A stretch of DNA of 64,000 nucleotides from contig NZ_CP069396.1 of the NCBI RefSeq assembly GCF_016887565.1, positions 7,298,001-7,362,000 on the forward strand, read 5' to 3'. Positions 1,575-30,351 of this stretch are shown here, one piece after another (positions within the stretch are counted from its first letter, which is position 1; each line of letters opens with the position of its first letter). The notes under the pieces were generated by a model that saw only the letters and a list, made by a program, of their open reading frames with translations, was not told the DNA's origin and ran no database searches. A program made the translations under genes and the position numbers. Source of the stretch: Archangium violaceum. Its GTDB lineage: Bacteria; Myxococcota; Myxococcia; Myxococcales; Myxococcaceae.

Positions 1575-1583
1575 GGCGCGGGC

Positions 1584-2681: not shown

Positions 2682-2693
2682 GAGACGTCAGCC

Positions 2694-3509
2694 TCAGAAG
2701 ATGAAGGTGTAGCCGAGGTCGAACTGCACCAGGTGCGTCAGGCCCGGATTCCGCGCGGGCTCACCACTCTCCCGCCCCGCCTCCCAGTCCTCGCGCACCA
2801 CGTTCACGCGGTACTGGTCCGTGAAGACCCAGTCGCGCAGCTCGAAGCGGATGGCGTGCCCACTGGCCACGAAGAAGCGGAAGCCCACCGCGCCGGACAC
2901 CACCGGCGCCATGCGCGTCTCGGTGCGCCAGTAGTTCTCCTTCGCGGTGGAGGCATCGAGCGGGTCCGACCGGTCATCGCAGATGCCCAGCTCGCGGTTC
3001 TGCACGCTGGTGCACTGGATCACCGACTGGCGCCGCAGCGAGGCCAGCCCGCCGCCGCCCCAGAGGTACGCCTGGAAGTGCGCCGTCTCGTCGGCCAGCA
3101 GCGACAGCTTGCCGTAGATGGGCGCCCAGCGGGCCCCCACCACGCCGTGGAGATTCATCTCCCACATGTCCTCGAGCTCGTCCGTGATCTTCTTGTCCTC
3201 ACGGTTGAGGAAGCTCTCGGAGATGGAGCGCGCCAGGCCCGTGTGGCGGCTGAGCGCATAGCCGGCCCGTGCCTCCAGGCCGAACGTGTTGAAGAGGTTG
3301 TAGGCCACGCCGACGTTGAGGTTGTAGTGCGCGGTGAGGTACTCGCGCACCGGCAACCCCACCGAAATGGACGCCTCCAGGTGCTCCTCCGGAGAGAAGA
3401 GCCGGTGGCGCACCGCGGCCGGGTCCAACACCTGCTGTTGCGCCGAGGCGGACAACGCCGTCAGCAGCAACGCCAAGGAAGCGGAGAGTGGAAGCGTGCG
3501 TGCAGTCAT
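2694..3509 (-). CDS. Outer-membrane beta-barrel protein, GltB/NfsA-like
   Basis: I take the ATG at 3509 because it opens directly into a signal peptide (MTARTLPLSASLALLLTALS, cleavage after SASA). The upstream in-frame extension lacks signal features. The 271-residue product has alternating-strand character and ends FDLGYTFIF, the terminal-Phe barrel signature. It is the first gene of the leftward unit with the second barrel and the TPR protein. Known relatives form the outer-membrane part of the Glt motility and Nfs spore-coat machines. Here no gltK-like lipoprotein gene lies upstream; an SRPBCC gene does, so the operon starts here. Confidence 0.75.
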   Translation of the reverse strand: MTARTLPLSASLALLLTALSASAQQQVLDPAAVRHRLFSPEEHLEASISVGLPVREYLTAHYNLNVGVAYNLFNTFGLEARAGYALSRHTGLARSISESFLNREDKKITDELEDMWEMNLHGVVGARWAPIYGKLSLLADETAHFQAYLWGGGGLASLRRQSVIQCTSVQNRELGICDDRSDPLDASTAKENYWRTETRMAPVVSGAVGFRFFVASGHAIRFELRDWVFTDQYRVNVVREDWEAGRESGEPARNPGLTHLVQFDLGYTFIF

Positions 3510-11229: not shown

Positions 11230-12165
11230 TTACCGGTCGCGGCCGAGGGGCTCTCCTTCTCGGAATTCCTTCTGGAGTGCCACGGCGACGAACTCGACGA
11301 AGCTTTTGATCCGCAACGGGATGTCCCGCCGCGGGGGCAGCACGATCTGGATCGGTAAGGACTGCGACGTCCAGCCACGGAACACGTGAACCAGTGAGCC
11401 GCTCTGAAGTTCATCCTTCATGAGGAACTCCGGAAGCCATGCGAGCCCCATGCCTTCCATGGCCATGGACTTCAGGATCAGCAAGTCGTTGCTCAGGAAG
11501 AGGCTATTCACCTGGAGCTGGCGCTCATCACCGCCGTTGATCAGTGACAGCCGCTGCTGAAAGGACCCGAAGCCTGAGAAGCCGAGAAAGGGAAGCTCGG
11601 TGAGGTCGACCGGCTCCTTCGGCAGACCGCCGTGCTCGCCAAGAAAACCCGGGCTCGCGGCAAGGAGCAGGTACGTCTCTCCCAGCTTCCTTTGAAGGAT
11701 GGAGCTGTCCTTGAGCCGGCCCACGCGCACGGCGAGATCGAACGAACCGCCGAGCAGGTCGACATGGTCGTTCGAGAGGTGAAGGTCGACCTGCACTCCC
11801 GGATGCAGTTTCAGGAAGTCCCGGCAGACGCGGCTCATGAGAAACTGTCCGATGTCCTCGGCCACGCTGAGCCGGATGGGCCCCGAGACTTCATGGGTAT
11901 TCTCCGTGAGCTCGTCGATGGCCTCGTGCACCTGCTCCATCAGCCCCTGCATCCTCAGATAGAAGATCTGGCCTGCTTCCGTCAGCCGGAAGTGACGCGA
12001 GGAGCGGTGGATGAGCCGCACGCCCAGCTCGGCCTCCAGCGCCGAGATGTTGCGGCTGACACGTGACTTCGGCTGCCTCAGTTTCGATGCGGCCTTGGTG
12101 AAGCTGCCACTGGTGGCGACCTCCCTGAAGATTTCGATGCGGTTGAGGTTGATGTCCCGGGACAA
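11230..12165 (-). CDS. LysR-family regulator of the AHBA-type operon
   Basis: I choose TTG 12165, giving 311 residues, the usual LysR length. It has GGAG about 6 nt upstream and leaves a perfect dyad (12181-12197) outside the gene; longer starts at 12240 or 12309 would bury that dyad. The N-terminal winged helix is clear (INLNRIEIFREVATSGSFTK, AASKLRQPKSRVSRNISALE), followed by a substrate-binding domain from about residue 90. It is divergent from the biosynthetic operon starting at 12300, the classic layout for a LysR regulator activating its neighbour while repressing itself. The inducer is unknown. Confidence 0.9.
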   Translation of the reverse strand: MSRDINLNRIEIFREVATSGSFTKAASKLRQPKSRVSRNISALEAELGVRLIHRSSRHFRLTEAGQIFYLRMQGLMEQVHEAIDELTENTHEVSGPIRLSVAEDIGQFLMSRVCRDFLKLHPGVQVDLHLSNDHVDLLGGSFDLAVRVGRLKDSSILQRKLGETYLLLAASPGFLGEHGGLPKEPVDLTELPFLGFSGFGSFQQRLSLINGGDERQLQVNSLFLSNDLLILKSMAMEGMGLAWLPEFLMKDELQSGSLVHVFRGWTSQSLPIQIVLPPRRDIPLRIKSFVEFVAVALQKEFREGEPLGRDR

Positions 12166-12180
12166 GCGTTCTCCGTCGTT

Positions 12181-12197
12181 GTTCCAGCGTGTGGAAC
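12181..12197. promoter_or_regulatory. Candidate LysR box
   Basis: GTTCCAGCGTGTGGAAC is a perfect 6-bp inverted repeat with a 5-bp spacer and contains the LysR T-N11-A core. It lies between the TTG start of the LysR gene and the operon start at 12300. Confidence 0.65.
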
Positions 12198-12299
12198 GTT
12201 GGGTTGCGGTCCCGTTCCCTCCCTCCGGAGCAGCTTTCATGGGAATCGTCCTCTCACGACTTCCGGGCATGTCGCGGTGCCCGCAGAGAGGGAGCACTG

Positions 12300-13112
12300 A
12301 TGCATACATTCACAGGCCTGGGCGGCGTGAACCGCCGGCAGATCATGAAGTTTGGAGGCGCCGCGCTTGCGACCGCCGCGCACATCCGCAGTGCGGCGGC
12401 CCGCATTCGTGCCGAGTTCTCAAGAGGCCATCAGGTCATCGCCGTGGTGAGCGCCATGGGCGACGAGACGGATCGCCTGGTCGCGCTCGCGGCCCAGCTC
12501 TCTTCCGAGACAGCACACGCCGAGGTCGACGCGGTGCTCGCGGCGGGCGAGCAAGTCTCCGCGGGGCTGATGGCGTTGGCACTCCAACAATCCGGCATCC
12601 GGGCGCGGTCCTTCCTGGCCAGCCAGATCCGCATCCGGACCGACGGATGCTTCGGCAACGCGGGCATCGTCGAGATCGAAACGGCGCGGCTGGAGGCCTC
12701 GCTCTCCCGGGGAGAGTTGCCAGTCATCGCGGGCTTCCAAGGCGTTGACGCGGAGGAACGCCTCGTCACGCTCGGGCGCGGCGGCTCGGACATGACGGCC
12801 GTGGCGCTCGCCGTCAGCCTTCGCGCCGACGTCTGTGAGCTCTTCAAGGATGTCGACGGGGTCTTCGCCGAGGATCCACGCCGCAATCCCCACGCACGGA
12901 AGCTGGAGCGCATCTCCTACGGGCAAATGGACGCCCTCGTGAGAGCCGGGGCCCAGGTTCTCCAGCGCTCCGCCGTGCAGCTCGCGGCCCGTCACGGTGT
13001 CCGCCTCCACGTGCGTTCCGCCTTCCATGAAGAAAGCGGCACCTGGGTCGGCCACGACGAAACCGAGTTTCCCCTGAACCCAACGCATCACATCCAGAAG
13101 GTAGCCATATGA
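12300..13112 (+). CDS. Aspartate kinase, catalytic domain only
   Basis: The 270-residue product starts at ATG 12300 behind a GGGAG site. It has the amino-acid kinase fold: the N-terminal KFGGAAL loop, VIAVVSAMGDETDRLV, and the late signature GRGGSDMTAVALAVSLRA then ELFKDVDGVFAEDPR. Normal aspartokinases have two ACT domains after about residue 270. Here they are missing, so lysine/threonine feedback should not apply (inference). It phosphorylates aspartate toward aspartate-4-semialdehyde, the C4 precursor used by the DhnA-type aldolase two genes downstream. It is first in the operon and overlaps the next gene by ATGA. Confidence 0.9.
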   Translation: MHTFTGLGGVNRRQIMKFGGAALATAAHIRSAAARIRAEFSRGHQVIAVVSAMGDETDRLVALAAQLSSETAHAEVDAVLAAGEQVSAGLMALALQQSGIRARSFLASQIRIRTDGCFGNAGIVEIETARLEASLSRGELPVIAGFQGVDAEERLVTLGRGGSDMTAVALAVSLRADVCELFKDVDGVFAEDPRRNPHARKLERISYGQMDALVRAGAQVLQRSAVQLAARHGVRLHVRSAFHEESGTWVGHDETEFPLNPTHHIQKVAI

Positions 13113-14359
13113 CACACGAACTGACGAACGGATACTCCCGCACCCGGCCAGAGGAACTGGCGGTGCTCCGCAAGCCCATCCGCCTCGAGGCGATGACCGG
13201 AATCTCAACAGCTGGGAAGCAGAACCAGACCCAGATCTGGTTCGACACGAAGGACTTCTCGGCGCCGCAGGACCATCAGGGCCTGTTCCTGCGGCTGGGG
13301 CGCTTCCACTACACGGGCGTCCTGCTGTACCCGCGGAACCTCGAGGCCCTCCTGCCAGCGGTTTCCGGAGGGCAGAGGGCCGCCGTTCGTCTGGAGTCCC
13401 TGGGGGAATTGGAGGCGTTGCTCGCCCAGCGGATCCAGTCCCCGCTGATCGTGGTGTCGGCGGATCAGGACGTCCTGGCTCGCGCGGGTGAAGCGGGCCT
13501 GTCCACCTGCCTCTACCAGTACGTCGACGACGGCGAGTCCCTGCACCGGTCCATCCAGCAGGGCTTCCGCCATCCGTTCCTGATGATCTGCTTCCGCGAC
13601 CCGACGAACATCCCTCTGGAGCTGGTGATCGCCTCCCTGCAAGCCACCGGCACCACCCTCATCAAGGAGATCGCGAACCCTACCGACGTCGACGACGCCA
13701 TCGTCACCCTGGGCGTCATGGAGGTGGGAGCAGATGGCGTGATGTTCTCGCCAGTCGAGCATGAGGTGCTGGAAGGCTTCGCGCGCAGGCTCGCCGAGCG
13801 GGGCCAGGAGCACGTCGCGCTCGAACCGGCCACGGTCACGAAGTCCGAGCCGATCGGCATGGGCTTCCGGAGCTGCATCGACCTGGCGACGCTGTTCGAG
13901 CCGACCGAGGGGATGATCGTGGGCTCCACCTCGCAGGGAGGGGTGCTGTGCTGCCCGGAGGTGTTCTTCCTTCCCTACATGGAGACGCGTCCGTTCCGCG
14001 TCAACGCGGGAGGTGTGCACAGCTACGTCTACAACGCCGCGAACCGGACCCATTACATGAGCGAGCTCAACGCGGGTTCGGCCGTGATGGTGGTTACCTC
14101 CGACGGCAGCACCCGGCAAGCGCCCGTTGGCCGGATGAAGACCGAACTGCGGCCGCTGCGGCTCATCGAGGCTCGCTTCGCCTCGGGAGAGACGATCAAC
14201 GTGATTCTCCAGGACGACTGGCACGTGCGTGTCTTCTCGCCCGAGGCAAAGCCTCTCAACATCACCGAGCTGCGGCCGGGCGATCGGATCCTGGCTCACA
14301 AGGCGGCGCCGGGCCGCCACGTCGGAATCAAGATCGACGAAAACATCAAGGAAAGCTGA
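13109..14359 (+). CDS. Dehydroquinate synthase II-like (GriH-type) enzyme
   Basis: The 416-residue product matches the archaeal-type 3-dehydroquinate synthase II family. It has long signatures in order: GVMEVGADGVMF (about residue 205), EPIGMGFRSCIDLATLF, the EGMIVGSTSQGGVLCCPEVF loop, then ETRPFRVNAGGVHSYVY and YMSELNAGSAVMVV with VGRMKTELRPLRLIEA. In archaea the family makes dehydroquinate from the ADH aldolase product. In bacterial secondary metabolism (GriH, grixazone) a relative converts the C7 aldol to 3-amino-4-hydroxybenzoate. The adjacent aldolase and private aspartokinase favour the second role. It overlaps the kinase gene by ATGA. Confidence 0.9.
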   Translation: MTHELTNGYSRTRPEELAVLRKPIRLEAMTGISTAGKQNQTQIWFDTKDFSAPQDHQGLFLRLGRFHYTGVLLYPRNLEALLPAVSGGQRAAVRLESLGELEALLAQRIQSPLIVVSADQDVLARAGEAGLSTCLYQYVDDGESLHRSIQQGFRHPFLMICFRDPTNIPLELVIASLQATGTTLIKEIANPTDVDDAIVTLGVMEVGADGVMFSPVEHEVLEGFARRLAERGQEHVALEPATVTKSEPIGMGFRSCIDLATLFEPTEGMIVGSTSQGGVLCCPEVFFLPYMETRPFRVNAGGVHSYVYNAANRTHYMSELNAGSAVMVVTSDGSTRQAPVGRMKTELRPLRLIEARFASGETINVILQDDWHVRVFSPEAKPLNITELRPGDRILAHKAAPGRHVGIKIDENIKES

Positions 14360-14373: not shown

Positions 14374-15177
14374 ATGAACACGGCGAAGAAGGTACGGCTC
14401 GGGAAGATCCTGGGCGCGAGCAGCCAGCGGGCAGTGATCGTCCCCATCGATCATGGGCTCACCATGGGACCCCTGACGGGAATCGAGTCCACGGCCCGCA
14501 TCGCACGCTGGATCGGCCATCCCGGCGTCGATGCAGTCCTCGCACACAAGGGAATCCTCTCGCGTCTGGCGGACCAGGGCGCCCTGGACCGCAAGGGTGT
14601 CATCCTTCACCTGAACGGGATGAGCAACCTCTCCGATTCGGTCGATGACAAGGAATGGCTGACGAGCATCGAGACGGCCCTGCTGCTCGGGGCCGACGCG
14701 GTGTCGCTCCAGGTCAACTTCAACGGACGGAATGACCGGGCGAACTGGAAGATGCTGGGACAAGCGGTGGATGGAGCGGCCCGCTACGGACTGCCCGTCC
14801 TGACCATGCTCTACGACAAAGTGGGCGAGGAGCCGCGGCGCTTGCACCGGCTCAAGCAGCTGATGCGCACCGCCGTGGAGCTGGGCACCGATGCGCTCAA
14901 GATTGGGATGAGTGAGCGGCCGGAACTGCTCCGCGAAGCGCTCGAGGACGTGCAGAGCGACGCCCTGGTCTTCGTCGCCGGGGGCGAGCTGACGGGCGAC
15001 GAGCCCCTGCTGGAGCACGTCTCGAATGCGCTCCGGGCGGGGGCGCGGGGGGTCTGCATTGGACGCAACATCTTCGTGAAGAAGAGTCCAGCGTTGCTCT
15101 TGGAGCGCCTCTCGGAGCTCGTCCACGGAGAGCCCGCGCGCGGTGAGCGGGAGGTGGCCCTTGCCAGCGTTCGTTGA
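14374..15177 (+). CDS. DhnA-type class I aldolase (GriI/ADH-synthase-like)
   Basis: The 267-residue product starts 14 bp after the synthase gene. It is a DhnA/class I fructose-bisphosphate-aldolase-like TIM barrel. PIDHGLTMGP holds Asp26, YDK147-149 offers the acid/base Tyr, and TDALKIGM holds Lys176, the likely Schiff-base Lys. Family members are archaeal 2-amino-3,7-dideoxyheptulosonate synthase (MJ0400) and GriI, which joins aspartate-4-semialdehyde to dihydroxyacetone phosphate. Paired with the type II synthase upstream, it should supply the C7 skeleton of 3,4-AHBA. The end of the gene overlaps the amidohydrolase start. Confidence 0.9.
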   Translation: MNTAKKVRLGKILGASSQRAVIVPIDHGLTMGPLTGIESTARIARWIGHPGVDAVLAHKGILSRLADQGALDRKGVILHLNGMSNLSDSVDDKEWLTSIETALLLGADAVSLQVNFNGRNDRANWKMLGQAVDGAARYGLPVLTMLYDKVGEEPRRLHRLKQLMRTAVELGTDALKIGMSERPELLREALEDVQSDALVFVAGGELTGDEPLLEHVSNALRAGARGVCIGRNIFVKKSPALLLERLSELVHGEPARGEREVALASVR

Positions 15178-15928
15178 TAGCCACGCCCACCTGTTGGCGA
15201 CGCAGGAAGCTTTCGAGCGGCTCCTTGCCACGATGGATCGGCTTGATGTCGAGCGCTGCATCGTCGTGGGAGGAGGACTACTGCCGCCCCGGCAGCTCTC
15301 CCGGCAGATCCTGAGACAGCCGACGCAAGCGGAGACGCAGGGGTTGACGTGTGACAACCGCTCGGTCCTCTCTCTCTGCGAGCACTCCGGGGGCCGGCTC
15401 GTGCCTTTCTACTTCGCCAATCCCTGGCTGGACCCGAAGGAGTACCGGGAGCTCGGACCGCGCTTCGCGGGCCTGAAACTGGGGCCCGCGGTTCATGGGG
15501 TGCCGCTCGATTCCCCAAGGACCTCGGCCTACCTGGATGTGGCTCGAGAGCACGGGCATCCCGTGTATCTGCATTGCCTGGACCGTGACGGATTCCGGGT
15601 CACGGACCTGGTGCGCCTGGCGGAGCGGTACACCGGGCTCCGGTTGATCCTGGGCCATGGCGGAATCGGCGAGCTCGACTACGACGGGGTCGACGCGATC
15701 GCTGGGTACCCGAACCTTTATTTCGAGACCTCGGGGGCCTTCAAGCACGTGATTCAGTACGCGGCCGACGTGCTCGGTGCCTCTCGGATCCTGTACGGGT
15801 CCGAGTACCCCCTGCAGAGCGCGGCGGCGGAACTCTGCAAGGTCCGGGAGCTCACCCTGAGCGATGCGGAAATGGAGGCAATCACCGGCGGCAACATCCG
15901 GCGTCTCCTCGCGAGAGCCAGCTCATGA
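15143..15928 (+). CDS. Amidohydrolase-family protein (decarboxylase-like?)
   Basis: The start is GTG 15143 (261 residues). TTG 15161 (255 residues) has the better site, GGAGG 6 nt upstream, and may be the real start. It is a small TIM-barrel metal enzyme of the amidohydrolase-2 type: metal-binding FVDSHAHL, VYLHCLD, LILGHGG, and the C-terminal YGSEYPLQ. The family includes hydrolases and aromatic decarboxylases (ACMSD, gamma-resorcylate decarboxylase). The usual metal-site Asp in G-S/T-D-Y/W-P is Glu here. It could decarboxylate or deacylate an AHBA-derived intermediate (inference). It overlaps both neighbours. Confidence 0.8.
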   Translation: MSGRWPLPAFVDSHAHLLATQEAFERLLATMDRLDVERCIVVGGGLLPPRQLSRQILRQPTQAETQGLTCDNRSVLSLCEHSGGRLVPFYFANPWLDPKEYRELGPRFAGLKLGPAVHGVPLDSPRTSAYLDVAREHGHPVYLHCLDRDGFRVTDLVRLAERYTGLRLILGHGGIGELDYDGVDAIAGYPNLYFETSGAFKHVIQYAADVLGASRILYGSEYPLQSAAAELCKVRELTLSDAEMEAITGGNIRRLLARASS

Positions 15929-17196
15929 GCTCACCAGCGCATGCATTTCCCCGGCAGCAGCTGGAAGAGGCCCTTCTGCGCGCCCGGTCCGCTCCCTTCT
16001 ACGAAGGCCGGTTGCCAAGGGCGGAGAAGCTCGACCGGCGGAGCTGGGAGCGGTTGCCACTGACGAGGAAGGAGGATCTGCGAGCGGCCTACCCCTTCGG
16101 GCTTCTCGCTGTCCCGCAAAGCCAGCTCAGCACCTACCACGAGTCCTCGGGAACAAGCGGACATCCCATCTCCTCGTATTTCACCGAGAGCGATTGGGAA
16201 GACATCCTCTCGCGCTTTCTGCGCAATGGCGTGAGGCTTTGCCGGGAAGACATGGTGCTGATCAAGACGCCCTATGCGCTGGTGACGACCGCCCACCAGA
16301 TGCATGGCGCGGCACGCTCCGTGGGCGCCTCCATCGTTCCCGCGGACAACCGCTCGGCCAACATGCCCTACTCCCGCGTGCTTCGGCTGCTGCACGACCT
16401 GCCGGTGACGGTCGCTTGGTGCATGCCTACCGAAGCGCTTCTCTGGGCCTATGCCGCGCGAAGGGCGGGACGGGCCCCCGCGCGAGATTTTCCCCGGTTG
16501 CGAACCTTCCTGGCCGCCGGAGAGCCCCTGAGTGCCGCGAAGCGCGCCCACATCGAGGCACTCTGGGGTGGAAAACGCGTCCTCATCGATTACGGCTCGA
16601 CCGAGACCGGTAGCCTGGCGGGAGAGTGCGAGCAGGGGCGGCTCCACCTCTGGAGCGACCGGCTCTACTTCGAGGTGCGCGATGCCCAGACGGGTGATTT
16701 CCGTGAGGAAGGGGCGGGAAGCCTCGTCGTCACGCCCCTGTTCCGCGAGGCCATGCCCCTCATCCGCTACGATCTGGAGGATGTGGTCGAGATCTCGCAT
16801 GCACCGTGTGGGTGCGGCCGCACGCTGCCAACCATTCGCGTCTTGGGACGGAAGACGGGCGTGATGAACGCTGGCACCCGGGCATTCTCCGCCCTGGAGC
16901 TGGAAGAGGCCGTCTATGCGAACGCCGCGGAGACAGGCTTGTGGTTCTGGCGAGCCCGCGTCCGGGACGGTGCGCTGGAAGCCCAGATCCACGTGGAGAC
17001 GCAGAACGAAGACGCGGCGTGCAGGCGCATCCTGCAAGCCATTGAAGCCACTGTCCCTGGAGTCCGCGTGAGGGTCGCCGCCGTCCCGGCGGAGTGCTTC
17101 GTTCCGGAAGCGCTGCTCTCACGAGAGGTCCCGATGCAGAAGCCCCGTTTTCTCTTCGGCGAAAACGAAGACTGGAAGTCACTGGATTACGCCTGA
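15925..17196 (+). CDS. PaaK-like adenylate-forming ligase
   Basis: The 423-residue product starts by ATGA overlap with the amidohydrolase. It matches the phenylacetate-CoA ligase (PaaK) branch: P-loop YHESSGTSGHPIS near residue 75, the A5-like IDYGSTETGS, then PLIRYDLEDVVEI and a CGCGR metal/structural motif (APCGCGRTLPTIRVLG) common in these ligases. PaaK relatives activate aromatic carboxylates to acyl-adenylates and CoA thioesters. The natural substrate here would be the carboxyl of 3,4-AHBA or a derivative (inference). No carrier protein is encoded nearby. Confidence 0.85.
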   Translation: MSSPAHAFPRQQLEEALLRARSAPFYEGRLPRAEKLDRRSWERLPLTRKEDLRAAYPFGLLAVPQSQLSTYHESSGTSGHPISSYFTESDWEDILSRFLRNGVRLCREDMVLIKTPYALVTTAHQMHGAARSVGASIVPADNRSANMPYSRVLRLLHDLPVTVAWCMPTEALLWAYAARRAGRAPARDFPRLRTFLAAGEPLSAAKRAHIEALWGGKRVLIDYGSTETGSLAGECEQGRLHLWSDRLYFEVRDAQTGDFREEGAGSLVVTPLFREAMPLIRYDLEDVVEISHAPCGCGRTLPTIRVLGRKTGVMNAGTRAFSALELEEAVYANAAETGLWFWRARVRDGALEAQIHVETQNEDAACRRILQAIEATVPGVRVRVAAVPAECFVPEALLSREVPMQKPRFLFGENEDWKSLDYA

Positions 17197-17217: not shown

Positions 17218-18885
17218 ATGACTGCAATGCCATCCACGCTCGTCGCTGACGAGCTCCGTCTCCAACTTGCGAAGGACCCGATGCTGGGCGCCGGCAATTT
17301 CCTGGATTGGGCTCTGAAGGTGAGCCCGGACCCGCGAGTGCCCATTCTCCATCTCGAGCGCGAGCTGGAGACGTTCACGGGAGAGAAGTTCCAGCAACTC
17401 AGCCTCGAGCAGCTCGCCCGCCTCGCGCACCTCTACGCCCGGCTCTACAAGAAGCTGGGGGTACGCACCGCGGATCCCGTCTTTGTCTACCTGGACGACG
17501 GGGTGGAGTACCTCATCCACTACCTCGCGCTCACGCACCTGGGCGCGATCGGAGTCCTCACCAACGGCAACATGGAGCCCCGGATCGCCGCGGCGCATGC
17601 GCGCAACGTCGGCGTGGCCGGCGTCTTCACGGATGCGTCCCACATCCAGGCCCTGCGTCCCCTCGTCCAGGAAAGCGTGACCGGGTTCATCGTGACCGAG
17701 GCCGATATCCGTGGAACCCAGGAGGCATCCCTGCCCACCTACCGGCGGCACGAGTTCTCCGCCGATGACCCGATCATGATCGCGCACTCCTCGGGAACGA
17801 CCGGCATTCCCAAGGCCGTGCTGCTCCAGCACGAGCGCTTCTTCCATGGGGTGCGCTACCGCCTGGGAGTCCCCAGGGTCACCGGAGGCGAGCGCATCCT
17901 GTCATCGCTCCCCCACTCCCATAACTGCGCCATCGCCTACCTCATGCTCGCGCTGCTGAGCGGGACACCGGTCTACATCGCCTCCGATCACTCGGGACGC
18001 GCGGTGCTGCGGCAGATCGATGCGTTCAAGCCCAGCATGGTTGTCTCCTTCCCGCAGACCTACGTCGAGATGACCGAGTGCGAGATGGACGCCTTCGATC
18101 TTTCCTCGGTGAACCTCTGGTTCAATGGCGGCGACGCGGCCCATGAGAGCCATATCCGGGCGCTCATCCGCCATGGCTTCCATGAGCAGAACGGCCAGCG
18201 GCAGCCCGGTTCGGTGTTCATCGACGGCATGGGCTCCTCCGAGATGGGGTTCTCGCTGTTCCGCCACGTCCATACGCTCAAGACCAATCACTACAACCGT
18301 TGCGTCGGGCGGCCGCTCGAATGGGTGGACGCGCAGATCCTCTCCGAAGAGGGGGACAAGCTTCCGCCATTCCAGGTCGGGCGGCTCGGGGTGAAAGCGC
18401 CTTCGGTGACAACGGGGTACTGGAACAACAGCCTGCTCACGTACCGGTCCCGTCTCTCGGGCTACTTCCTCACCGGAGACCTGGCCTACCGCGACGAGGA
18501 GGGCCGGATCTTCCACGTGGATCGCACTCCGGACGTGATCCTCACGCCCAGCGGGCCGGTCTATGGCCTGCAGACCGAGGAGTTCCTGCTGAGCCGCTTC
18601 TCGGCGATCGCGGACTGCGCGGTGTTCGGCCAGCAAGACGGGGCCACGGGTGCCGTCCGCGCGGTGGCCTACGTGCGGATACGGCCGGACTCGGACCTCT
18701 CGGGCCACGACACGTCAGAGCTCGCTGGCCGTTTCAACCAGGAGCTCGCGCGCGCGGGCCTGCCCACGCTGGGAGGCGTCCTGGCCGTCGGTGTGGACGA
18801 CATCCCCCTGGGGACCACGGGCAAGGTCCTGAAGCGGATGCTGCGAATGAATGAGCCCCGGCCCACGCCGCAATCGGCGGCCTGA
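17218..18885 (+). CDS. AMP-dependent synthetase/ligase
   Basis: The 555-residue product starts 21 bp after the PaaK-like gene. It has the adenylate-forming core: IMIAHSSGTTGIPKAVLLQH (A3), the glycine-rich IDGMGSSEMGFS (A5), FLTGDLAYRDEEGRIFHVDR (A7/A8) and the C-terminal PLGTTGKVLKRMLR (A10 Lys). It differs from the preceding PaaK-like enzyme, so the operon holds two unlike carboxylate-activating enzymes. They may activate the two partners of an amide or ester, or one may be a CoA ligase for a fatty acyl or aryl tail (inference). No thioesterase, carrier or condensation domain is present. Confidence 0.9.
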   Translation: MTAMPSTLVADELRLQLAKDPMLGAGNFLDWALKVSPDPRVPILHLERELETFTGEKFQQLSLEQLARLAHLYARLYKKLGVRTADPVFVYLDDGVEYLIHYLALTHLGAIGVLTNGNMEPRIAAAHARNVGVAGVFTDASHIQALRPLVQESVTGFIVTEADIRGTQEASLPTYRRHEFSADDPIMIAHSSGTTGIPKAVLLQHERFFHGVRYRLGVPRVTGGERILSSLPHSHNCAIAYLMLALLSGTPVYIASDHSGRAVLRQIDAFKPSMVVSFPQTYVEMTECEMDAFDLSSVNLWFNGGDAAHESHIRALIRHGFHEQNGQRQPGSVFIDGMGSSEMGFSLFRHVHTLKTNHYNRCVGRPLEWVDAQILSEEGDKLPPFQVGRLGVKAPSVTTGYWNNSLLTYRSRLSGYFLTGDLAYRDEEGRIFHVDRTPDVILTPSGPVYGLQTEEFLLSRFSAIADCAVFGQQDGATGAVRAVAYVRIRPDSDLSGHDTSELAGRFNQELARAGLPTLGGVLAVGVDDIPLGTTGKVLKRMLRMNEPRPTPQSAA

Positions 18886-18912: not shown

Positions 18913-19638
18913 ATGACCCCTGCTACTCAGCTGTCGGCCCGCTGGGACGGCCTGCTCCCGAAGGAATCCCTGGAGCGGCTCGATGCCACCGAGTTCCTCA
19001 CCCGCTGCCGCCAAGGAACCGCGGCCCGCGGCGTGCTCGAGAGATTCCTCGTGCAGCAGTACCACTACTCCCGCCACTTCACGCGGTACCTCTGCGCCTT
19101 GCTGGCGAACCTGACCAGCGAGACCGACCGCTTCGCCCTGACGGAGAACCTCTTCGAGGAAATGGGGCTCGGCGGCATGGGCGAGGTGCCCCACTCGCAA
19201 ATCTACCGACGGATGCTGGACGCCTTCGGATTGGAGCCCTCGGCCCAGCCGCCGCTCGCGGAGACAACGGCCCTGGTGAGGAACATGTTGCGGCTCTGTT
19301 CGGACTCCGATCCCCTGGTCGGACTCGGCGCGCTCTGCCTCGGCGCGGAGGCCATCGTCCCGCACGTCTACCAGCAAATCCTCACCGGCCTCCTGAGCGC
19401 TGGTTTTCCGGAGCGGGACCTCATCTTCTTTCCCATGCACATCGATGGTGATGATGACCATGCACTGACGATGAAGCACATCATCGAGCGTGAGCTCGCC
19501 GAGCGGCCCGGCAAGCGGGACGTGCTGCGCGCGGCCGCGGAGCAGAGCATCGAAGCGCGCCGCGCGTTCTTCGCGGCCCTCACCGCGTCCGAGGAGCAAT
19601 CCGCTGGCGCTTCGAGGAGGGCCTCCGGTGCACTTTAG
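18913..19638 (+). CDS. Heme-oxygenase-like diiron oxidase (HDO) family
   Basis: The 241-residue all-helical protein has metal-ligand candidates at Glu82/Glu83 (ENLFEEMG), His94 (VPHSQIY), Glu146 (LGAEAIVPH) and the triad His176-x3-Asp180-x2-His183 (MHIDGDDDHAL). The H-x3-D-x2-H spacing matches CADD-type heme-oxygenase-like diiron enzymes. The family includes SznF (N-oxygenation), UndA, BesC and CADD, which use O2 on small amines or carboxylates. In this operon oxidation of the 3-amino group of AHBA to hydroxylamine, nitroso or nitro is an attractive guess. Oxidative decarboxylation is the alternative. The 3' end overlaps the cupin start by 11 bp. Confidence 0.8.
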   Translation: MTPATQLSARWDGLLPKESLERLDATEFLTRCRQGTAARGVLERFLVQQYHYSRHFTRYLCALLANLTSETDRFALTENLFEEMGLGGMGEVPHSQIYRRMLDAFGLEPSAQPPLAETTALVRNMLRLCSDSDPLVGLGALCLGAEAIVPHVYQQILTGLLSAGFPERDLIFFPMHIDGDDDHALTMKHIIERELAERPGKRDVLRAAAEQSIEARRAFFAALTASEEQSAGASRRASGAL

Positions 19639-20083
19639 CTCGAAGGATTTCGCTCAAACGCGGGCGGTGCTCCGCGCTCGAGTGCCCGAACGACTGCACC
19701 ACGCGGGAGTGACGGAGCAGGTCCACGGCGCGTTCTCGGACGAGCGGGGCCACGGCGTGGCGATCGTGGACCTGCCATCGCGAACCCTCAGCCTGACGAT
19801 CGGGCACCTGCGGGCCGGGCAATCCACACGGCTGCACCGGCACAACTACGAGACAATCCTCTACATCCTGAAGGGCCAAGGCTACACGCTCGTCGAGAAC
19901 CGGAAGGTCGAGTGGAAGGCCGGTGATGCCGTCTACGTTCCTGTCTGGGCCTGGCATCGCCACGTCAACACCGACACGCGGCTCGAGGCCGAGTACGTGG
20001 CCTGCGAGAATGCTCCGCTCCTGCAGAACCTTGGCGAGATTGCCCTCCGCGAAGAGGCGCCCCCACAGGAAGGTCACGAATGA
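19628..20083 (+). CDS. Cupin-domain protein
   Basis: GTG 19628 follows a GAGGAGGG site and gives 151 residues. It has both cupin motifs: STRLHRHNYETILYILKGQG (motif 1, with two His and a Glu) and GDAVYVPVWAWHRHVNT (motif 2, His). It is a single-domain metal-binding beta-barrel, either a small dioxygenase or isomerase, or an accessory metal or product binder. It is translationally coupled to the HDO gene upstream (11-bp overlap) and the OsmC gene downstream (ATGA). A tailoring role on the aromatic product is possible but unproven. Confidence 0.85.
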   Translation: MHFSSKDFAQTRAVLRARVPERLHHAGVTEQVHGAFSDERGHGVAIVDLPSRTLSLTIGHLRAGQSTRLHRHNYETILYILKGQGYTLVENRKVEWKAGDAVYVPVWAWHRHVNTDTRLEAEYVACENAPLLQNLGEIALREEAPPQEGHE

Positions 20084-20511
20084 GCCAGACACACATCAAG
20101 GCACGCTGGAAGGGTGGCGCGGGTGGAAGCGGCTTCCTCCAGGCAAGCGAGGGCTTCGAGACCCGCGTGACGCTGCCGAAGGACTTCCAAGGGCTCGGAG
20201 AAGCCGCTACCCCCGAGAACCTGCTCCTGAGCGCCGTCGCGAGCTGCTACCTCATCACCTTCGGAATCATCCTCGACAAGGCGGGGATTGCGTACGAGGG
20301 CCTGGAGCTCGAAGGAGAGCTGCGGATGGACATGGCCCCCCGGCCCTCTGTCCAAGCGATCATGCTCCTCCCGCGCATCGTCTCCAGCGCGAGCGAGGAA
20401 GCCCTCCGGACCCTCTCCGAACGAGCCGAGCAGTTCTGCCCCATTGGCCGGGCCGTGGCGGGAAATGTCGCGAAGTCGGTCCGTCTGACGGTGGTCGCTC
20501 CGGGCTCCTGA
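20080..20511 (+). CDS. OsmC/Ohr-family peroxiredoxin-like protein
   Basis: The 143-residue product has both reactive Cys of the OsmC/Ohr fold: LLLSAVASCYLITFG and ERAEQFCPIGRAV. Members reduce organic hydroperoxides with thiol cofactors. Being last and ATGA-coupled in this operon, it may protect against peroxide by-products of the diiron or cupin oxygenases, or against a redox-active aminophenol product (inference). It ends 12 bp from the convergent AOC-like gene. Confidence 0.9.
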   Translation: MSQTHIKARWKGGAGGSGFLQASEGFETRVTLPKDFQGLGEAATPENLLLSAVASCYLITFGIILDKAGIAYEGLELEGELRMDMAPRPSVQAIMLLPRIVSSASEEALRTLSERAEQFCPIGRAVAGNVAKSVRLTVVAPGS

Positions 20512-21225: not shown

Positions 21226-22716
21226 TCAATGGCCGTGCTCGCCCGCCTTGCTTTGTGCCGCGGGTCTTTCCCGAGGCGAGCTCGACTGGGGGGCCGGCAC
21301 GAGCCGCGCGATGCGATCGGGTTCGTTGAAAGCGATGTAGATGTAGCCATCCGAGCCGCTCACGACGTCGCGCACCCGGCCGACGTCCTTGAACAGCACC
21401 TCCTGGTGCACGACCTTGCCGTCCTCGAGCCTCAGGCGCCTCAACTCCTGCTGAGCGAGCGCGCCCACGAACAGGTCGTTCTTCCACTGGGGGAAGCGAC
21501 TGCCCGTATAGAAGTCGATCGCGCTCACGGCGATGGAAGGCGTCCAGTGCAGCACGGGCTGCTCCATGCCCTCTTGCGCGGTGCGGTCGGTCATCGGCGT
21601 GCCGTCATAGTTCATGCCGTAGGTGATGACCGGCCAGCCGTAGTTGAGACCGGGCGCGATGCGGTTCAGCTCATCACCACCCCGGGGGCCGTGCTCCGTC
21701 TCCCAGAGCTCCCCGGTCACGGGGTGCCGCGCCAGGCCCTGCGGATTGCGGTTGCCGTAGCTCCAGATGCTCGCGATGGCGCCCTCGCGGCCGGCGAACG
21801 GGTTGTCCTTCGGAATGCTCCCGTCCTCGTGGATGCGGTGCACCTTGCCGTTGGGCCGCGACAGCTCCTGCGCATCCTCCTTGCGGCCCCGCTCCCCGAT
21901 GGAGAAGAACACGTGGCCCTTGCCGTCGAAGACGATGCGGGAGCCGAAGTGCACGCCTCCGGTGCGGTAATGCTCGGGGCGCGCGCGGAAGAGCGTCTGC
22001 TGCTCCACGAGCCGACCCTCGCGCAGCTTGCCCCGGACGAGCACCGTCATGGCGGAGTCATTCGCGCCAGGGTCGCTGTAGGAGAGGTAGATCCACCCGT
22101 TCCGGGCGTAGTCGGGATGCACCGCGACGTCGAGGAGGCCTCCCTGGTTCCGCGACCAGACCTCCGGCGTGCCGCTGATGGGCTTGGGCAGGAGGCGGCC
22201 CTTCTCCACCACGCGCAACCGTCCGGCCTTCTCCGTCACCAGCATGCGCCCGTCGGGCAGGAACGCCATGGACCACGGCGTCTCGAGTCCCTCGGCGATC
22301 GTCTCGAGCTTGAACGCGTGCCGCTCACTGTTCACGACCTTGTCCGCCACGGGCCTGGCGAAAGAGGTGCTCTCGCTCCGCTTCTTCGCGCCCTGCTCGC
22401 GCAGGTAGATGACGAGTGCGCGGATGTCCTGGGGCGACAGCGTACCCGAGAAGGCGGGCATGCCCTCTGAGAGCCGCCCCTCGCGGATGCTCCGCGCGAT
22501 GCTCTCGTCGTCCGCGCCGGACTTCCAGGTGTCGTCGACCAGGTTCGGACCCAGCCCGCCCTCCAGCTTGGGGCCGTGGCAGTTCACGCAGAGCGAGGCA
22601 TAGATCTCGGCGACGTCGCGCCGGGACGACTGGGGGGACTGGGGCTGCTGCGCGCTCGCGAGGGAGGCGAACACGAGCAGCCCGCACATCAGGGGGGAGC
22701 TGAATGCGTTGGACAT
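21226..22716 (-). CDS. Periplasmic sugar dehydrogenase with cytochrome c domain
   Basis: The 496-residue product has a signal peptide (ends SLASA), then a class I cytochrome c domain with C-V-N-C-H (about residue 43) and a distal Met (GMPAFSGTLS). From about residue 130 it is a six-bladed soluble PQQ-type glucose/sorbosone dehydrogenase: ETPWSMAFLPDGRMLVTEKA, GGLLDVAVHPDY, GGVHFGSRIVFDGKGHVFFS, WSYGNRNPQGLARHP and the EHGPRGGDELN loop. The fused heme would take electrons from PQQ to the respiratory chain. PQQ genes are not in the window. The role is periplasmic aldose oxidation (family inference). Confidence 0.9.
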   Translation of the reverse strand: MSNAFSSPLMCGLLVFASLASAQQPQSPQSSRRDVAEIYASLCVNCHGPKLEGGLGPNLVDDTWKSGADDESIARSIREGRLSEGMPAFSGTLSPQDIRALVIYLREQGAKKRSESTSFARPVADKVVNSERHAFKLETIAEGLETPWSMAFLPDGRMLVTEKAGRLRVVEKGRLLPKPISGTPEVWSRNQGGLLDVAVHPDYARNGWIYLSYSDPGANDSAMTVLVRGKLREGRLVEQQTLFRARPEHYRTGGVHFGSRIVFDGKGHVFFSIGERGRKEDAQELSRPNGKVHRIHEDGSIPKDNPFAGREGAIASIWSYGNRNPQGLARHPVTGELWETEHGPRGGDELNRIAPGLNYGWPVITYGMNYDGTPMTDRTAQEGMEQPVLHWTPSIAVSAIDFYTGSRFPQWKNDLFVGALAQQELRRLRLEDGKVVHQEVLFKDVGRVRDVVSGSDGYIYIAFNEPDRIARLVPAPQSSSPRERPAAQSKAGEHGH

Positions 22717-22890
22717 GGCGCGCGTACTCTACTGAAGTTCTCCTCCAGCACAGCCCACGGCCCTCTTGGCTCGCGGACTGGTTGGTGTCATTGGCTGCGT
22801 CCTATCCGGGAATATCGCCATATGCTCACCGTTCGTGCGCCGGGCTTCGCCAGGTTGCCGGCTGCGCGGACAGAGACAAGGAGGTTCTCG

Positions 22891-24600
22891 GTGAACGCCG
22901 TTCGATCGATTTGCTGTCTGGTAGCCGCCGTCCTGGCCTGGTCCGCGCAAGCGTCTCCGGCCCGGGTGAAGACGGCGGAGGATGCCGACGCCGCCCGGCG
23001 CCACCGACAGGTGGATGCGATCTTCGCGCCGTGGAGCGGCGCGGATACGCCCGGTTGTGCGGTCGGCATCTCCCGCGACGGAGCGCTCGACTACGCGCGC
23101 GGCTACGGAGTGTCGAACCTGGAGTACAACGTACCGATCACGCCGCAGTCGATCTTCTACATCGCCTCCATCTCCAAGCAGTTCACCGCGTTTTCGATCG
23201 GGCTGCTGGCTCAAGAGGGCAAGCTGTCGCTGGACGACGATATCCGCAAATACCTGCCGGAGATGCCCGATCATGGCAAGACGATTACCATCGCGCACCT
23301 GATCCACCACACCAACGGCCTGCGCGAACAGGGCCAGCTGCTGAACCTGGCCGGCTGGCGCGGCGACGACCTGTACACCGAAGCGGACATACTCTGGGCG
23401 TTGACCCGGCAACGCGGTTTGAATTTCGTTCCGGGCACGGAGGTCGTGTACGGCAATGCCGCGTACACGCTGCTGGGGGTGATCGTTCGGCGCGTGTCCG
23501 GCAAGTCGCTGCGGGCGTTCGCCGACGAGCGGATCTTCAAGCCGCTCGGCATGGCCGACACCCATTTCCACGACGACCACACCGAGCTCGTGCCCCGGCG
23601 CGCATCGGCCTACAGCAAACGCGAAGGCGGCGGCTGGCGGATCAGCGTCCCCCATATCGACCATTACGGCTCGACCAGCCTGTTCACCACGGTCGGCGAC
23701 CTGCTGAAGTGGGAGCAGAACCTGCTCGACGCGCGCGTCGGAGGGCAGGCGCTGATAGCGTCGTTGCAAACCTCCGGCAGGTTGAACGACGGCACCGCCA
23801 CCGGCTATGGCGGCGGCCTGCGGCTGTCAGATCATCGCGGCCTTCGCATGGTGAGCCACGACGGCGTGGACGGCGGCTACCGCACGGACGCCATCCTCTT
23901 CCCGGACCAGCGGCTGGCCATCGTTGCGTTGTGCAACGGCGCCACGATCGCGCCCGAAGACCTCACGAGGAAGGTGGCCGAGGTGTATCTGGGCGATCGC
24001 ATGAAGAACACGATGCCGCCCGCCGTCAAGCTGCCGGAGGCGGAGCTGTCGGCGCTGGTCGGCAACTACTGGAGTCCCTTGACGGATGAAGTGGTGCGGC
24101 TGGAGGTCAAGGACGGAGCGCTGCGCCAGGTCGGCATGCCCACGGCATTCGTGCCCATCGGCAATGGCGCGTTCCGTCCGGGCGAGTCGACGCACGTGTG
24201 GCGCTTCTCGGAGCCGGCGGCCGATGGCCCGCGCGGGTTGAGCATCAAGGATGTCTGGCCGACGACGAGGGACTTCATCCGCGTGACCGCGCCCATGCCC
24301 ACGGACTCGGCGTTGGCATCGTTCGCCGGGCAGTACCGCAGCGACGAGGTCGACATGACCTACACAGTGCGGGTCGCGGATGGCAAGCTGGCGATACGTT
24401 GGCCACGCCGGGACGAGGTCGTGCTGGAAGCCGTCGGCGGGGACCGCTTCGTCGGCTCGCTCGGCACGGTCACGTTCACGCGGGCGGCCTCCGGTGGAAT
24501 AGACGGGTTGACGATCAGCAATCGTCGCCTGCGCCGTCTGCGCGCGGAAAGGCTCGTGGCACCGGAGACGCCGCGAATGCGGGTGCCACGTCCTGGCTGA
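22891..24600 (+). CDS. Secreted serine hydrolase (beta-lactamase fold)
   Basis: I choose GTG 22891 because AAGGAGG lies 5 nt upstream and the frame opens a signal peptide (ends WSAQA). ATG 22822 is the alternative. The 569-residue product is a class C beta-lactamase/PBP4*-like serine hydrolase: S93-x-x-K96 (IASISKQFTAFS), Y-x-N (VVYGNAAYT) and H-x-G (VSHDGVDGG). Two smaller beta-rich C-terminal domains follow (about residues 385-560), as in many esterase-like family members. The likely substrate is a peptide or ester, not necessarily a beta-lactam. A second, unlike member lies at 28890-30263. Confidence 0.9.
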   Translation: MNAVRSICCLVAAVLAWSAQASPARVKTAEDADAARRHRQVDAIFAPWSGADTPGCAVGISRDGALDYARGYGVSNLEYNVPITPQSIFYIASISKQFTAFSIGLLAQEGKLSLDDDIRKYLPEMPDHGKTITIAHLIHHTNGLREQGQLLNLAGWRGDDLYTEADILWALTRQRGLNFVPGTEVVYGNAAYTLLGVIVRRVSGKSLRAFADERIFKPLGMADTHFHDDHTELVPRRASAYSKREGGGWRISVPHIDHYGSTSLFTTVGDLLKWEQNLLDARVGGQALIASLQTSGRLNDGTATGYGGGLRLSDHRGLRMVSHDGVDGGYRTDAILFPDQRLAIVALCNGATIAPEDLTRKVAEVYLGDRMKNTMPPAVKLPEAELSALVGNYWSPLTDEVVRLEVKDGALRQVGMPTAFVPIGNGAFRPGESTHVWRFSEPAADGPRGLSIKDVWPTTRDFIRVTAPMPTDSALASFAGQYRSDEVDMTYTVRVADGKLAIRWPRRDEVVLEAVGGDRFVGSLGTVTFTRAASGGIDGLTISNRRLRRLRAERLVAPETPRMRVPRPG

Positions 24601-30263: not shown

Positions 30264-30351
30264 GCGGCACCTCCGGACGATGCACGGCCCCAGGCACGCG
30301 CGCGAAGCGCAGCCCCGACCGAGCGCGGAATGGGATGGATGCACGCTGTAT

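What the first reader, a model, noticed from the sequence alone, without database searches (positions are those of the whole stretch)
18913..19638. Heme-oxygenase-like diiron enzyme as possible arylamine N-oxygenase
The operon encodes an HDO-fold protein with a complete ligand set (E82 or E83, H94, E146, H176, D180, H183) next to an AHBA pathway. HDO enzymes such as SznF N-oxygenate amines, so the product could be an o-nitrosophenol or o-nitrophenol. Known nitrosophenol routes use copper enzymes (NspF), making this a potentially different chemistry.
Basis: inference. Interest (0 to 1): 0.75.

Follow-up and report, generated by a model that had tools for sequence, protein, structure and literature searches.

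The report
Diiron oxidase paired with a diazotase
A myxobacterial gene set that builds the aromatic amine 3,4-AHBA also encodes an iron oxidase beside a relative of enzymes that turn amines into diazo groups, and because the usual partner genes that make nitrite for that step were not found, the oxidase may feed it in a way not yet described.

Summary
It sits in a nine-gene 3,4-AHBA operon plus a divergent LysR gene, conserved in four other genomes.

Two neighbours were missed. The gene upstream belongs to the CreM/Tri17/AvaA6 diazotase family (NF058622 475 bits, next family 189; Tri17 340 bits, 4-coumarate-CoA ligase 98). The gene downstream, overlapping, is a cupin; fused or adjacent HDO-cupin pairs recur in 14 of 16 more distant Myxococcota loci.

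In a proteobacterial genome (G272) a 42% HDO again directly follows a diazotase homologue beside AHBA genes. Neither genome gave a CreE match or a CreD above cut-off; the window's genome has NapA-like genes.

Best reading: the operon diazotises 3,4-AHBA and the HDO (with cupin) supplies oxidised nitrogen such as nitrite (0.35). Direct N-oxygenation of 3,4-AHBA remains possible (0.27). No activity was tested; both structure models were unusable.

The parts
11230..12309 (-). LysR-type regulator, divergent, conserved with the operon
   Evidence: PF03466/PF00126; present in the 4 orthologous loci at 75-93%
12300..13112 (+). Aspartokinase, catalytic domain only (match ends at about position 245 of 407 in NCBIfam models); precursor supply
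   Evidence: PF00696 168 bits, TIGR00657 254.6 bits over its cut-off of 208.7 (queried from 12285); ATG at 12300
13109..14359 (+). 3,4-AHBA synthase of the GriH/BagC/FevH kind (3-dehydroquinate synthase II family)
   Evidence: PF01959 295 bits; NF002625 282 bits, NF041224 BagC_FevH 234.8 bits, below cut-off 750
14374..15177 (+). DhnA-type aldolase of the GriI/BagB kind
   Evidence: PF01791; NF005556 191 bits, NF041223 BagB_FevI 120 bits, both below cut-off (queried from 14368); ATG at 14374
15143..15928 (+). Amidohydrolase_2 TIM-barrel protein, role unknown
   Evidence: PF04909 93 bits; no NCBIfam family at E<=0.01; no PDB relative at E<=1e-3
15925..17196 (+). FevW/BagE-like aryl-AMP ligase (aryl ester synthetase family)
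   Evidence: NF041217 414 bits, cut-off 800, next family 141
17218..18885 (+). ANL-superfamily diazotase homologue (CreM/Tri17/AvaA6 family)
   Evidence: NF058622 474.7 bits (cut-off 975) vs next 189; PDB 8ztz 380, 9xb8 358, Tri17 9bq0/8tf7 340, best 4CL 98 bits; 98/98 supported clade of 9 rows
18913..19638 (+). Heme-oxygenase-like dimetal oxidase; predicted ligands E83, H94, E146, H176, D180, H183
19628..20083 (+). Single-domain cupin, gentisate-dioxygenase-like, candidate metal ligands H70, H72, H110; overlaps the HDO gene by 11 bases
   Evidence: PF07883 54 bits; PDB 3bu7 91.9 bits alone, 115.9 with a profile; fused or adjacent to HDO in 14 of 16 distant loci; the three His invariant in 12 of 12 aligned cupins
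20080..20511 (+). OsmC-family peroxiredoxin-like protein, last gene of the conserved unit
   Evidence: PF02566 59 bits; conserved in the 4 orthologous loci at 89-97%

Best explanation
The operon makes 3,4-AHBA (aspartokinase, DhnA aldolase, AHBA synthase) and most likely diazotises it, or an ester of it, with the CreM/Tri17/AvaA6-type ligase at 17218-18885. The HDO, working with the overlapping cupin, most likely uses O2 and a dimetal centre to produce the oxidised-nitrogen co-substrate for that ligase (nitrite or an equivalent) from a common amine such as an amino acid, the job done in actinomycetes by CreE and CreD. Shown by computation: fold family by sequence, ligand set, operon and its conservation, diazotase-family membership, no detectable CreE and no CreD above cut-off, repeated neighbourhood. 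Inferred: that the ligase is an active diazotase (about 0.55), that the HDO is an N-oxygenase, and that its product feeds the ligase.
For: (1) The ligase is nearest by far to the diazotase family. (2) The characterised members use nitrite and ATP; CreE/CreD-type genes make that nitrite in the actinomycete clusters (PMC11705231 passages; PMC10777205 discussion; PMC11429834 discussion). (3) CreE was found (E<=1e-5) in none of the window's genome, its four relatives and G272; CreD-model hits were at most 130-144 bits in the five myxobacterial genomes against a cut-off of 650 and absent in G272 (E<=1e-10), while the control plasmid rang at 788 bits (CreD) and 1525 (CreE, self-match). (4) In G272 the HDO directly follows a diazotase homologue (328.8 bits) in a run with GriH-like, GriI-like and AvaA7-like diazo-reductase genes. 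Its diazotase groups with the Klebsiella one (100/100), apart from the window's, so HDO and diazotase meet in two diazotase lineages. (5) The HDO recurs with small metal-enzyme partners (cupin, or NF005484 class II aldolase) in settings where no AHBA gene was hit, as expected of a portable donor module. (6) In 8 opened plasmid regions with a diazotase match HDO was found in 0 of 8; CreE and CreD flanked the ligase in 2, and part of a CreE lay at the edge of a third. (7) HDO-fold N-oxygenases are known: SznF, HrmI, RohS; with the broad profile HrmI is among the better PDB matches (72.9 bits).
Against: Five of the 8 opened plasmid regions had neither HDO nor CreE/CreD in the stretch read, and in 4 of those 5 the whole record gave no CreE and no CreD above cut-off, so lack of nearby nitrite genes is not special to HDO clusters (one of the 5, Leisingera, scores higher to a CoA-ligase model than to the diazotase model). 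The window's genome encodes two NapA-like molybdopterin oxidoreductases (partial segments, 389 and 488 bits to NapA; cut-off 904), so nitrite from nitrate is conceivable. In the second HDO-cupin-AHBA cluster (G094/G096) the nearest ligase is only 7 bits closer to the diazotase model than to a CoA-ligase model. B. stagnalis and Pantoea have the HDO with no diazotase hit nearby. With the narrower profile the nearest solved relatives are CADD/PabS (55.3), 3bjd/8w1q (47.8; FlcD, as recalled) and BesC (35.3), with HrmI at 22.9 and SznF not listed, so kinship does not point to N-oxygenation. The cupin matches gentisate-type dioxygenases; SznF is not listed for it.
Confidence: 0.35

Rival explanations
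1. One reading: the HDO oxidises the amino group of 3,4-AHBA (free or as a FevW/BagE-type ester) to hydroxylamine, nitroso or nitro, giving an o-nitrosophenol or o-nitrophenol; the diazotase-like ligase does something else or acts on another amine.
For: RohS, an HDO, oxidises 2-aminoimidazole to azomycin. A FevW/BagE-like ligase is in the operon, and FevW is proposed to take 3,4-AHBA and 4-hydroxy-3-nitrosobenzoate. HDO plus cupin recurs with AHBA synthase (60-61% identity) in a second myxobacterial cluster whose ligase is not a clear diazotase.
Against: A diazotase-family enzyme in the same operon would compete for the amine. The HDO of B. stagnalis, 58.5% identical to that of the AHBA cluster in G272, lies in a stretch with no AHBA gene hit. 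No ferredoxin- or reductase-like redox partner is among the operon's families.
Confidence: 0.27
2. The HDO performs a carbon-centred oxidation (desaturation, C-C or C-N cleavage, or decarboxylation) on an amino acid or other partner that becomes the second half of the product, and the cupin or class II aldolase processes it further. Nitrogen oxides are not involved.
For: Most characterised HDOs act on amino or fatty acids, and several cleave or desaturate carbon. The narrower profile ranks CADD, 3bjd/8w1q and BesC above HrmI, with SznF not listed. The Pantoea relative is in frame with an EctB-type transaminase and its plasmid carries a class II aldolase.
Against: Does not explain why HDO directly follows a diazotase homologue in two lineages without a detected CreE.
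Confidence: 0.22
3. HDO and cupin act on the aromatic nitrogen or ring after the ligase: for example hydroxylation followed by gentisate-type ring opening by the cupin, or oxidation of a hydrazone/hydrazine-type intermediate to a diazo group as the ferritin-like enzyme Dob3 does.
For: The cupin's nearest named relatives are gentisate, 5-aminosalicylate and 5-nitrosalicylate 1,2-dioxygenases. PMC13061610 lists HDOs among oxidoreductases in putative diazo clusters that carry hydrazone-forming genes (legend).
Against: 3,4-AHBA is a p-hydroxybenzoate, not a salicylate (chemical knowledge). HDO-cupin fusions occur in loci where no AHBA gene was hit. No gene of the operon matches the MetRS/cupin hydrazine synthetases by name; this was not searched specifically.
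Confidence: 0.1
4. The HDO is a self-sacrificing p-aminobenzoate synthase of the CADD/PabS kind.
For: TIGR04305 is the only NCBIfam hit (47 bits, cut-off 200).
Against: The sacrificial Tyr27 and Lys152 of CADD align with L29 and I156.
Confidence: 0.01

Closest known systems
Cremeomycin (CreM/CreE/CreD), avenalumic/p-coumaric acid (AvaA6, CmaA6) and crexazone (CrxM) pathways
   Same: Diazotase-family ANL enzyme; combined with 3,4-AHBA synthesis in the cma and crx clusters as read, and with an aminobenzoate substrate in cre
   Different: No CreE found and no CreD above cut-off in the genome; an HDO and cupin are present instead; no AvaA7-like family among this operon's hits
Bagremycin/ferroverdin cluster (FevH, FevI, FevW/BagE)
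   Same: AHBA synthase, DhnA aldolase and FevW/BagE-like ligase in one operon
   Different: All three score below the models' cut-offs; the amine-oxidising candidate is an HDO, and a diazotase homologue is present
SznF (streptozotocin HDO-cupin enzyme)
   Same: Order HDO then cupin; in one open frame in 9 of the 16 distant relatives, 3 of which have lost HDO ligands
   Different: HDO similarity is weak (23.7 bits with the broad profile, not listed at E<=0.01 with the narrow one); the cupin matches gentisate dioxygenases and SznF is not listed for it
RohS, HrmI (HDO amine N-oxygenases)
   Same: HDO fold; oxidise amines to nitro groups; HrmI 72.9 bits with the broad profile
   Different: Substrates are 2-aminoimidazole and lysine; HrmI only 22.9 bits with the narrow profile; RohS was not compared by sequence
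CADD/PabS p-aminobenzoate synthases
   Same: Among the nearest solved relatives of the HDO; six ligand columns align
   Different: Sacrificial Tyr and Lys absent
AurF, CmlI, AzoC arylamine N-oxygenases
   Same: Diiron enzymes acting on arylamines
   Different: AurF and CmlI have the ferritin-like fold, not this family

Membership tests
Heme-oxygenase-like dimetal oxidases (HDO) | HDO-family sequence profile | tested here: met
   PF14518 97.1 bits, cut-off 28.9
Heme-oxygenase-like dimetal oxidases (HDO) | Three His and three carboxylate ligands on the core helices | tested here: met
   E83, H94, E146, H176, D180, H183 invariant in 12 of 12 and 8 of 8 aligned sequences; two relatives with lost ligands had been left out of the 12
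Heme-oxygenase-like dimetal oxidases (HDO) | Seven-helix fold | tested here: inconclusive
   AlphaFold model mean pLDDT 47.3 with 2 sequences; no fold search was run on it
Heme-oxygenase-like dimetal oxidases (HDO) | Bound metal and O2 activation | not testable with these tools
   needs protein
SznF-type N-nitrosating enzymes | SznF-type cupin after the HDO domain | tested here: not met
   Cupin profile finds gentisate dioxygenases; SznF not listed at E<=0.1, nor for the cupin alone at E<=5
SznF-type N-nitrosating enzymes | Seventh metal ligand (fourth carboxylate) of the 3H/4C set | tested here: inconclusive
   Only 10 residues lie between E83 and H94; cannot be judged without a structure
CADD/PabS pABA synthases | Sacrificial Tyr and amine-donor Lys | tested here: not met
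   L29 and I156 at those positions (residues named)
CreM/Tri17/AvaA6 diazotases (gene 17218-18885) | Full-length similarity closer to characterised diazotases than to CoA ligases | tested here: met
   340 bits to Tri17 (380 and 358 to two further chains) over residues 2-544 vs 98 bits to 4CL; NF058622 474.7 vs 189 bits
CreM/Tri17/AvaA6 diazotases (gene 17218-18885) | Curated cut-off of the AvaA6 equivalog model (975 bits) | tested here: not met
   474.7 bits: family member, not an AvaA6 equivalog
CreM/Tri17/AvaA6 diazotases (gene 17218-18885) | ATP- and nitrite-dependent diazotisation | not testable with these tools
   assay needed
Aspartate-nitrosuccinate (CreE/CreD) nitrite pathway | CreE- and CreD-type genes in the genome | tested here: not met
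   CreE 0 matches at E<=1e-5 in G000; best NF052556 hit 130.4 bits, cut-off 650; a diverged CreE could be missed
3,4-AHBA biosynthesis (GriH/GriI type) | Adjacent DHQS-II-type AHBA synthase and DhnA-type aldolase | tested here: met
   both below the cut-offs of the bagremycin/ferroverdin exception models; activity not tested

The most novel reading that the evidence does not exclude
HDOs of this subfamily, paired with a small metal-dependent partner (a gentisate-type cupin in myxobacteria, an NF005484 class II aldolase in proteobacteria), form a portable module that makes nitrous acid or an equivalent nitrogen oxide, unrelated to the CreE/CreD pathway, and feed CreM-type diazotases that act on 3,4-AHBA.
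Probability: 0.25. Interest if true: 0.8.

Novelty: new variant of a known kind. Interest (0 to 1): 0.6.

Why it matters
The diazotase pathways in the papers read use nitrite from CreE and CreD. A second biological source of nitrite, built on an HDO, would be new enzyme chemistry and a new handle for finding diazo metabolites, which are reactive and easily missed in isolation. Even if the HDO oxidises 3,4-AHBA directly, that would be an HDO acting on a benzenoid amine next to a diazotase. Either way the operon is compact (nine genes) and makes the question directly testable. I saw no description of an HDO-diazotase-AHBA cluster in the listings (30 of 48, 6 of 6, 18 of 21, 20 of 69, 20 of 177 and 6 of 9 matching papers listed; open-licence papers only). 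The nearest prior note seen is in PMC13061610 (legend): HDOs among oxidoreductases in putative diazo clusters of the hydrazone route.

Tried and rejected
Structure: AlphaFold of the HDO (2 sequences) gave pLDDT 47.3 and of the cupin 33.3. Both were discarded and no fold search was run. A viral-contig scan for HDO relatives found none (29 pattern matches, 0 confirmed). The one genome-contig scan, with the diazotase alignment, gave 2 loci: Hyalangium versicolor (L052, a contig of the same length as that of G100) and an irrelevant 23% Pseudoduganella ligase. The first HDO alignment read minus-strand loci on the wrong strand; its minus rows were not used.

Considered and rejected: pABA synthase (sacrificial residues missing); strict SznF analogue (cupin of another kind); E82 as ligand. 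A seventh carboxylate ligand such as E91 is not decidable without a structure. I first thought the 'aldolases' of B. stagnalis and Pantoea might match the GriI-like aldolase; they gave no hit to it. The B. stagnalis one scores as class II aldolase and the Pantoea one is 51-58% identical to that type. I first took the second myxobacterial cluster (L041/L044) to lack an AHBA synthase; fetching more flank showed one at 60-61% identity, but its ligase turned out not to be a clear diazotase. The AspK and aldolase starts used in early calls (12285, 14368) are not start codons; 12300 and 14374 are.

Limits: the genome search was confined to genomes with handles. HDO relatives were sought in 195 Myxococcota genomes (17 with a match at 1e-15, the window's own included), 399 genomes of the order of G195 (2 at 1e-18) and, with the G272 HDO, 369 genomes of the class of G272 (1 at 1e-30, G272 itself). 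The second match (G451, 36%) was fetched (L065) but not analysed further. At most 6 or 14 candidates were scored per genome. Of 19 plasmid records with a diazotase match I opened 8 (H1, H7, H8, H9, H10, H12, H14, H18); of 4 with an HDO match I opened 3. Of the 21 HDO matches, 5 are the window type and 16 were treated as distant relatives. G096 was searched for CreE/CreD only in the fetched stretches, not genome-wide.

Full report
OBSERVATION. The ORF at 18913-19638 encodes a 241-aa protein of the HDO family (PF14518, 97.1 bits, cut-off 28.9). The alignment to CADD puts E83, H94, E146, H176, D180 and H183 opposite CADD residues 81, 88, 142, 174, 178 and 181; that those are CADD's ligands is recalled. 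All six are invariant in the 12 sequences of one alignment and the 8 of another. Two more distant relatives (L036, L045) lack some of these ligands in the 14-row alignment and were left out of the 12. The first ligand is E83 rather than E82. The exact spacing appeared in 0 of 200,000 shuffles. Metal binding is not shown, and the structure model was too poor to use.

OPERON. The + strand genes are aspartokinase (catalytic part only), AHBA synthase, DhnA aldolase, amidohydrolase, FevW/BagE-like ligase, diazotase-family ligase, HDO, cupin and OsmC-like protein; gaps run from -35 to +27 bases. With the divergent LysR gene, all nine are conserved in four other genomes of the family (LysR 75-93%, the nine 81-98%), while three flanking genes tested had no hit in those loci.

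THE MISSED NEIGHBOUR. The ligase directly upstream of the HDO matches the AvaA6 diazotase model at 474.7 bits, the next model at 189. Its best PDB relatives are 8ztz (380 bits), 9xb8 (358) and 9bq0/8tf7 (340), against 98 bits for 4-coumarate-CoA ligase, aligned over nearly the full length. PMC11705231 (passages) identifies 9BQ0 and 8TF7 as Tri17, which uses nitrite and ATP; what 8ztz and 9xb8 are was not established. A small tree puts the ligase in a supported clade (98/98) with eight relatives from the myxobacterial, G272 and plasmid loci, with three long-branched CoA-ligase-like rows outside; the order within the clade is mostly open. One of the eight, Leisingera, scores higher to a CoA-ligase model (218 bits) than to the diazotase model (203). 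In 193 Myxococcota genomes, matches to the diazotase model at E<=1e-70 occur only in the five genomes that carry the operon (at most 6 candidates scored per genome). The window's ligase is below the model's curated cut-off (975), so it is a family member and not an AvaA6 equivalog. Activity is not shown.

NITRITE SOURCE. Diazotase pathways in the literature read use nitrite made by CreE and CreD (PMC10777205 discussion; PMC11429834 discussion). A Streptomyces CreE-like protein (from L060) found no match at E<=1e-5 in the window's genome, four relatives and G272; the CreD model found hits of at most 130-144 bits in the five myxobacterial genomes (cut-off 650) and none in G272. In the window's genome the two CreD-model hits are two of its only three Lyase_1 genes. 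The control plasmid rang for both, for CreE as a self-match; the same CreE query also recognised two other Streptomyces regions at 65-72% identity. A diverged CreE could still be missed. Against the argument: the window's genome has two NapA-like molybdopterin enzymes (partial segments). Also, 5 of 8 opened plasmid regions with a diazotase match had neither HDO nor CreE/CreD in the stretch read, and 4 of those 5 whole records gave no CreE and no CreD above cut-off (the fifth, L097, was not searched whole).

THE CUPIN. The gene after the HDO overlaps it by 11 bases and encodes a cupin close to gentisate-type dioxygenases (3bu7 91.9 bits alone, 115.9 with a profile; 5-nitrosalicylate dioxygenase 8ch4 33 bits), with H70, H72 and H110 in the usual metal-ligand places (placing recalled; invariant in 12 of 12). 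In 16 more distant Myxococcota HDO loci a related cupin is present in 14: in the same open frame in 9 and in a separate frame next to the HDO in 5. The order is that of SznF, whose cupin forms the N-N bond (PMC11177257 passages), but the cupin is of another kind.

RELATIVES OF THE HDO. Closest outside the operon type are G272 (42%; same order as Pseudoduganella violacea, that is Burkholderiales, order name recalled), a Burkholderia stagnalis plasmid (44%) and Pantoea agglomerans plasmids (41.5%). In G272 the run is GriH-like (32% to the window's), GriI-like (30%), AvaA7-like reductase (NF058621 best, 74.6 bits, cut-off 400), MFS transporter, diazotase homologue (35%; 328.8 bits), HDO, class II aldolase (NF005484, 431 bits, cut-off 261). 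In B. stagnalis the HDO and the same aldolase type (410 bits) lie with an AurF-like enzyme and polyketide genes. In one Pantoea plasmid the HDO is annotated as one protein with an EctB-type transaminase; in the other the EctB call starts after the HDO; the aldolase lies elsewhere on the plasmid. B. stagnalis and Pantoea have no hit to AHBA synthase or diazotase in the stretches read. Above cut-off, NF005484 was found only in G272 among 7 genomes, and in none of the six myxobacterial ones. A second myxobacterial cluster type (G094, G096) has HDO, cupin, aspartokinase, GriI-like aldolase and AHBA synthase (60-61% to the window's), but its ligase is not a clear diazotase (196 against 189 bits).

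KINSHIP. Against solved structures the HDO alone finds 3bjd/8w1q (43 bits) and CADD (36). A broad profile ranks CADD 93.9, PabS 88.9, HrmI 72.9, BesC 72.4, 8w1q 63.6, UndA 33, SznF 23.7. A narrower one ranks CADD 55.3, 3bjd 47.8, 8w1q 47.2, PabS 42.8, BesC 35.3, HrmI 22.9, with SznF not listed at E<=0.01. So kinship alone does not choose between N- and C-oxidation.

INTERPRETATION. HDO plus AHBA synthase occurs in three cluster types (window, G094/G096, G272), and HDO directly after a firm diazotase homologue in two (window, G272), whose diazotases fall in different supported groups. HDO with a small metal-enzyme partner also occurs where no AHBA gene was hit. A donor module feeding the diazotase explains this best (0.35). 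A 3,4-AHBA N-oxygenase (0.27) is supported by RohS, by the FevW/BagE-like ligase and by the G094/G096 cluster. A carbon-centred oxidation (0.22) fits the narrower profile (that 8w1q and 3bjd are FlcD is recalled). No enzyme step was tested.

PAPERS. Read in part: PMC13108848 (outline, sections 4, 8, 10, 11), PMC11429834 (outline, discussion), PMC10777205 (outline, discussion); passages of PMC11705231, PMC13061610, PMC11965152, PMC10724926, PMC11177257 and PMC9221444. All others were seen in search listings only. Literature searches.

Noticed in passing
L036 9186-10469, L037 (open frame 521-3148), L045 8779-10062: HDO-cupin fusions whose HDO part has lost metal ligands (L036: H94, H176, D180, H183 positions; L045: H94, D180, H183 positions; L037 similar by eye), possibly pseudoenzymes or cupin-only enzymes.
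   Followed up: partly
L055 19935-21935; L056 8286-21352: Pantoea agglomerans 38-kb mobilizable plasmid with an HDO in frame with an EctB-type transaminase, plus ThiF, TauD, an ATP-grasp and a PurD-like protein, amidase and class II aldolase: looks like an uncharacterised biosynthetic cluster.
   Followed up: partly
L058 10753-16686: Klebsiella michiganensis plasmid with AHBA synthase, DhnA aldolase, AvaA7-like reductase (82.6 bits), MFS and diazotase homologue; no HDO match for this record in the plasmid search and no CreE or CreD on it.
   Followed up: partly
L054 4228-23186: Burkholderia stagnalis cluster with HDO, class II aldolase, AurF-like enzyme (142 bits), ketosynthase pair, FdxA, ferredoxin reductase and PurU: product unknown.
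   Followed up: partly
L041 8605-15001 with L089 1770-7379; L044 with L091: Second myxobacterial cluster with HDO, cupin, aspartokinase, GriI-like aldolase, AHBA synthase, thioester-reductase-like protein and two AMP ligases.
   Followed up: partly
12300-13112: The operon's aspartokinase ends where the NCBIfam models have about 160 more positions (matches to about 245 of 407), so it may escape feedback control; the G096 homologue is 450 aa and matches the whole model.
   Followed up: no
15143-15928: Amidohydrolase_2 protein with a GSEYP motif where family members commonly have GSDYP (recalled), no NCBIfam family and no PDB relative at E<=1e-3; could be a decarboxylase or hydrolase of unusual kind.
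   Followed up: no
G000:C1:643763-645037 and 4016200-4017528: Two NapA-like molybdopterin oxidoreductases in the window's genome, a possible nitrite source.
   Followed up: partly
22576-24600 and 28890-30344: Two ORFs whose sequences look like serine beta-lactamase/esterase-type proteins (by eye) near the operon; not among the genes tested for conservation with it.
   Followed up: no
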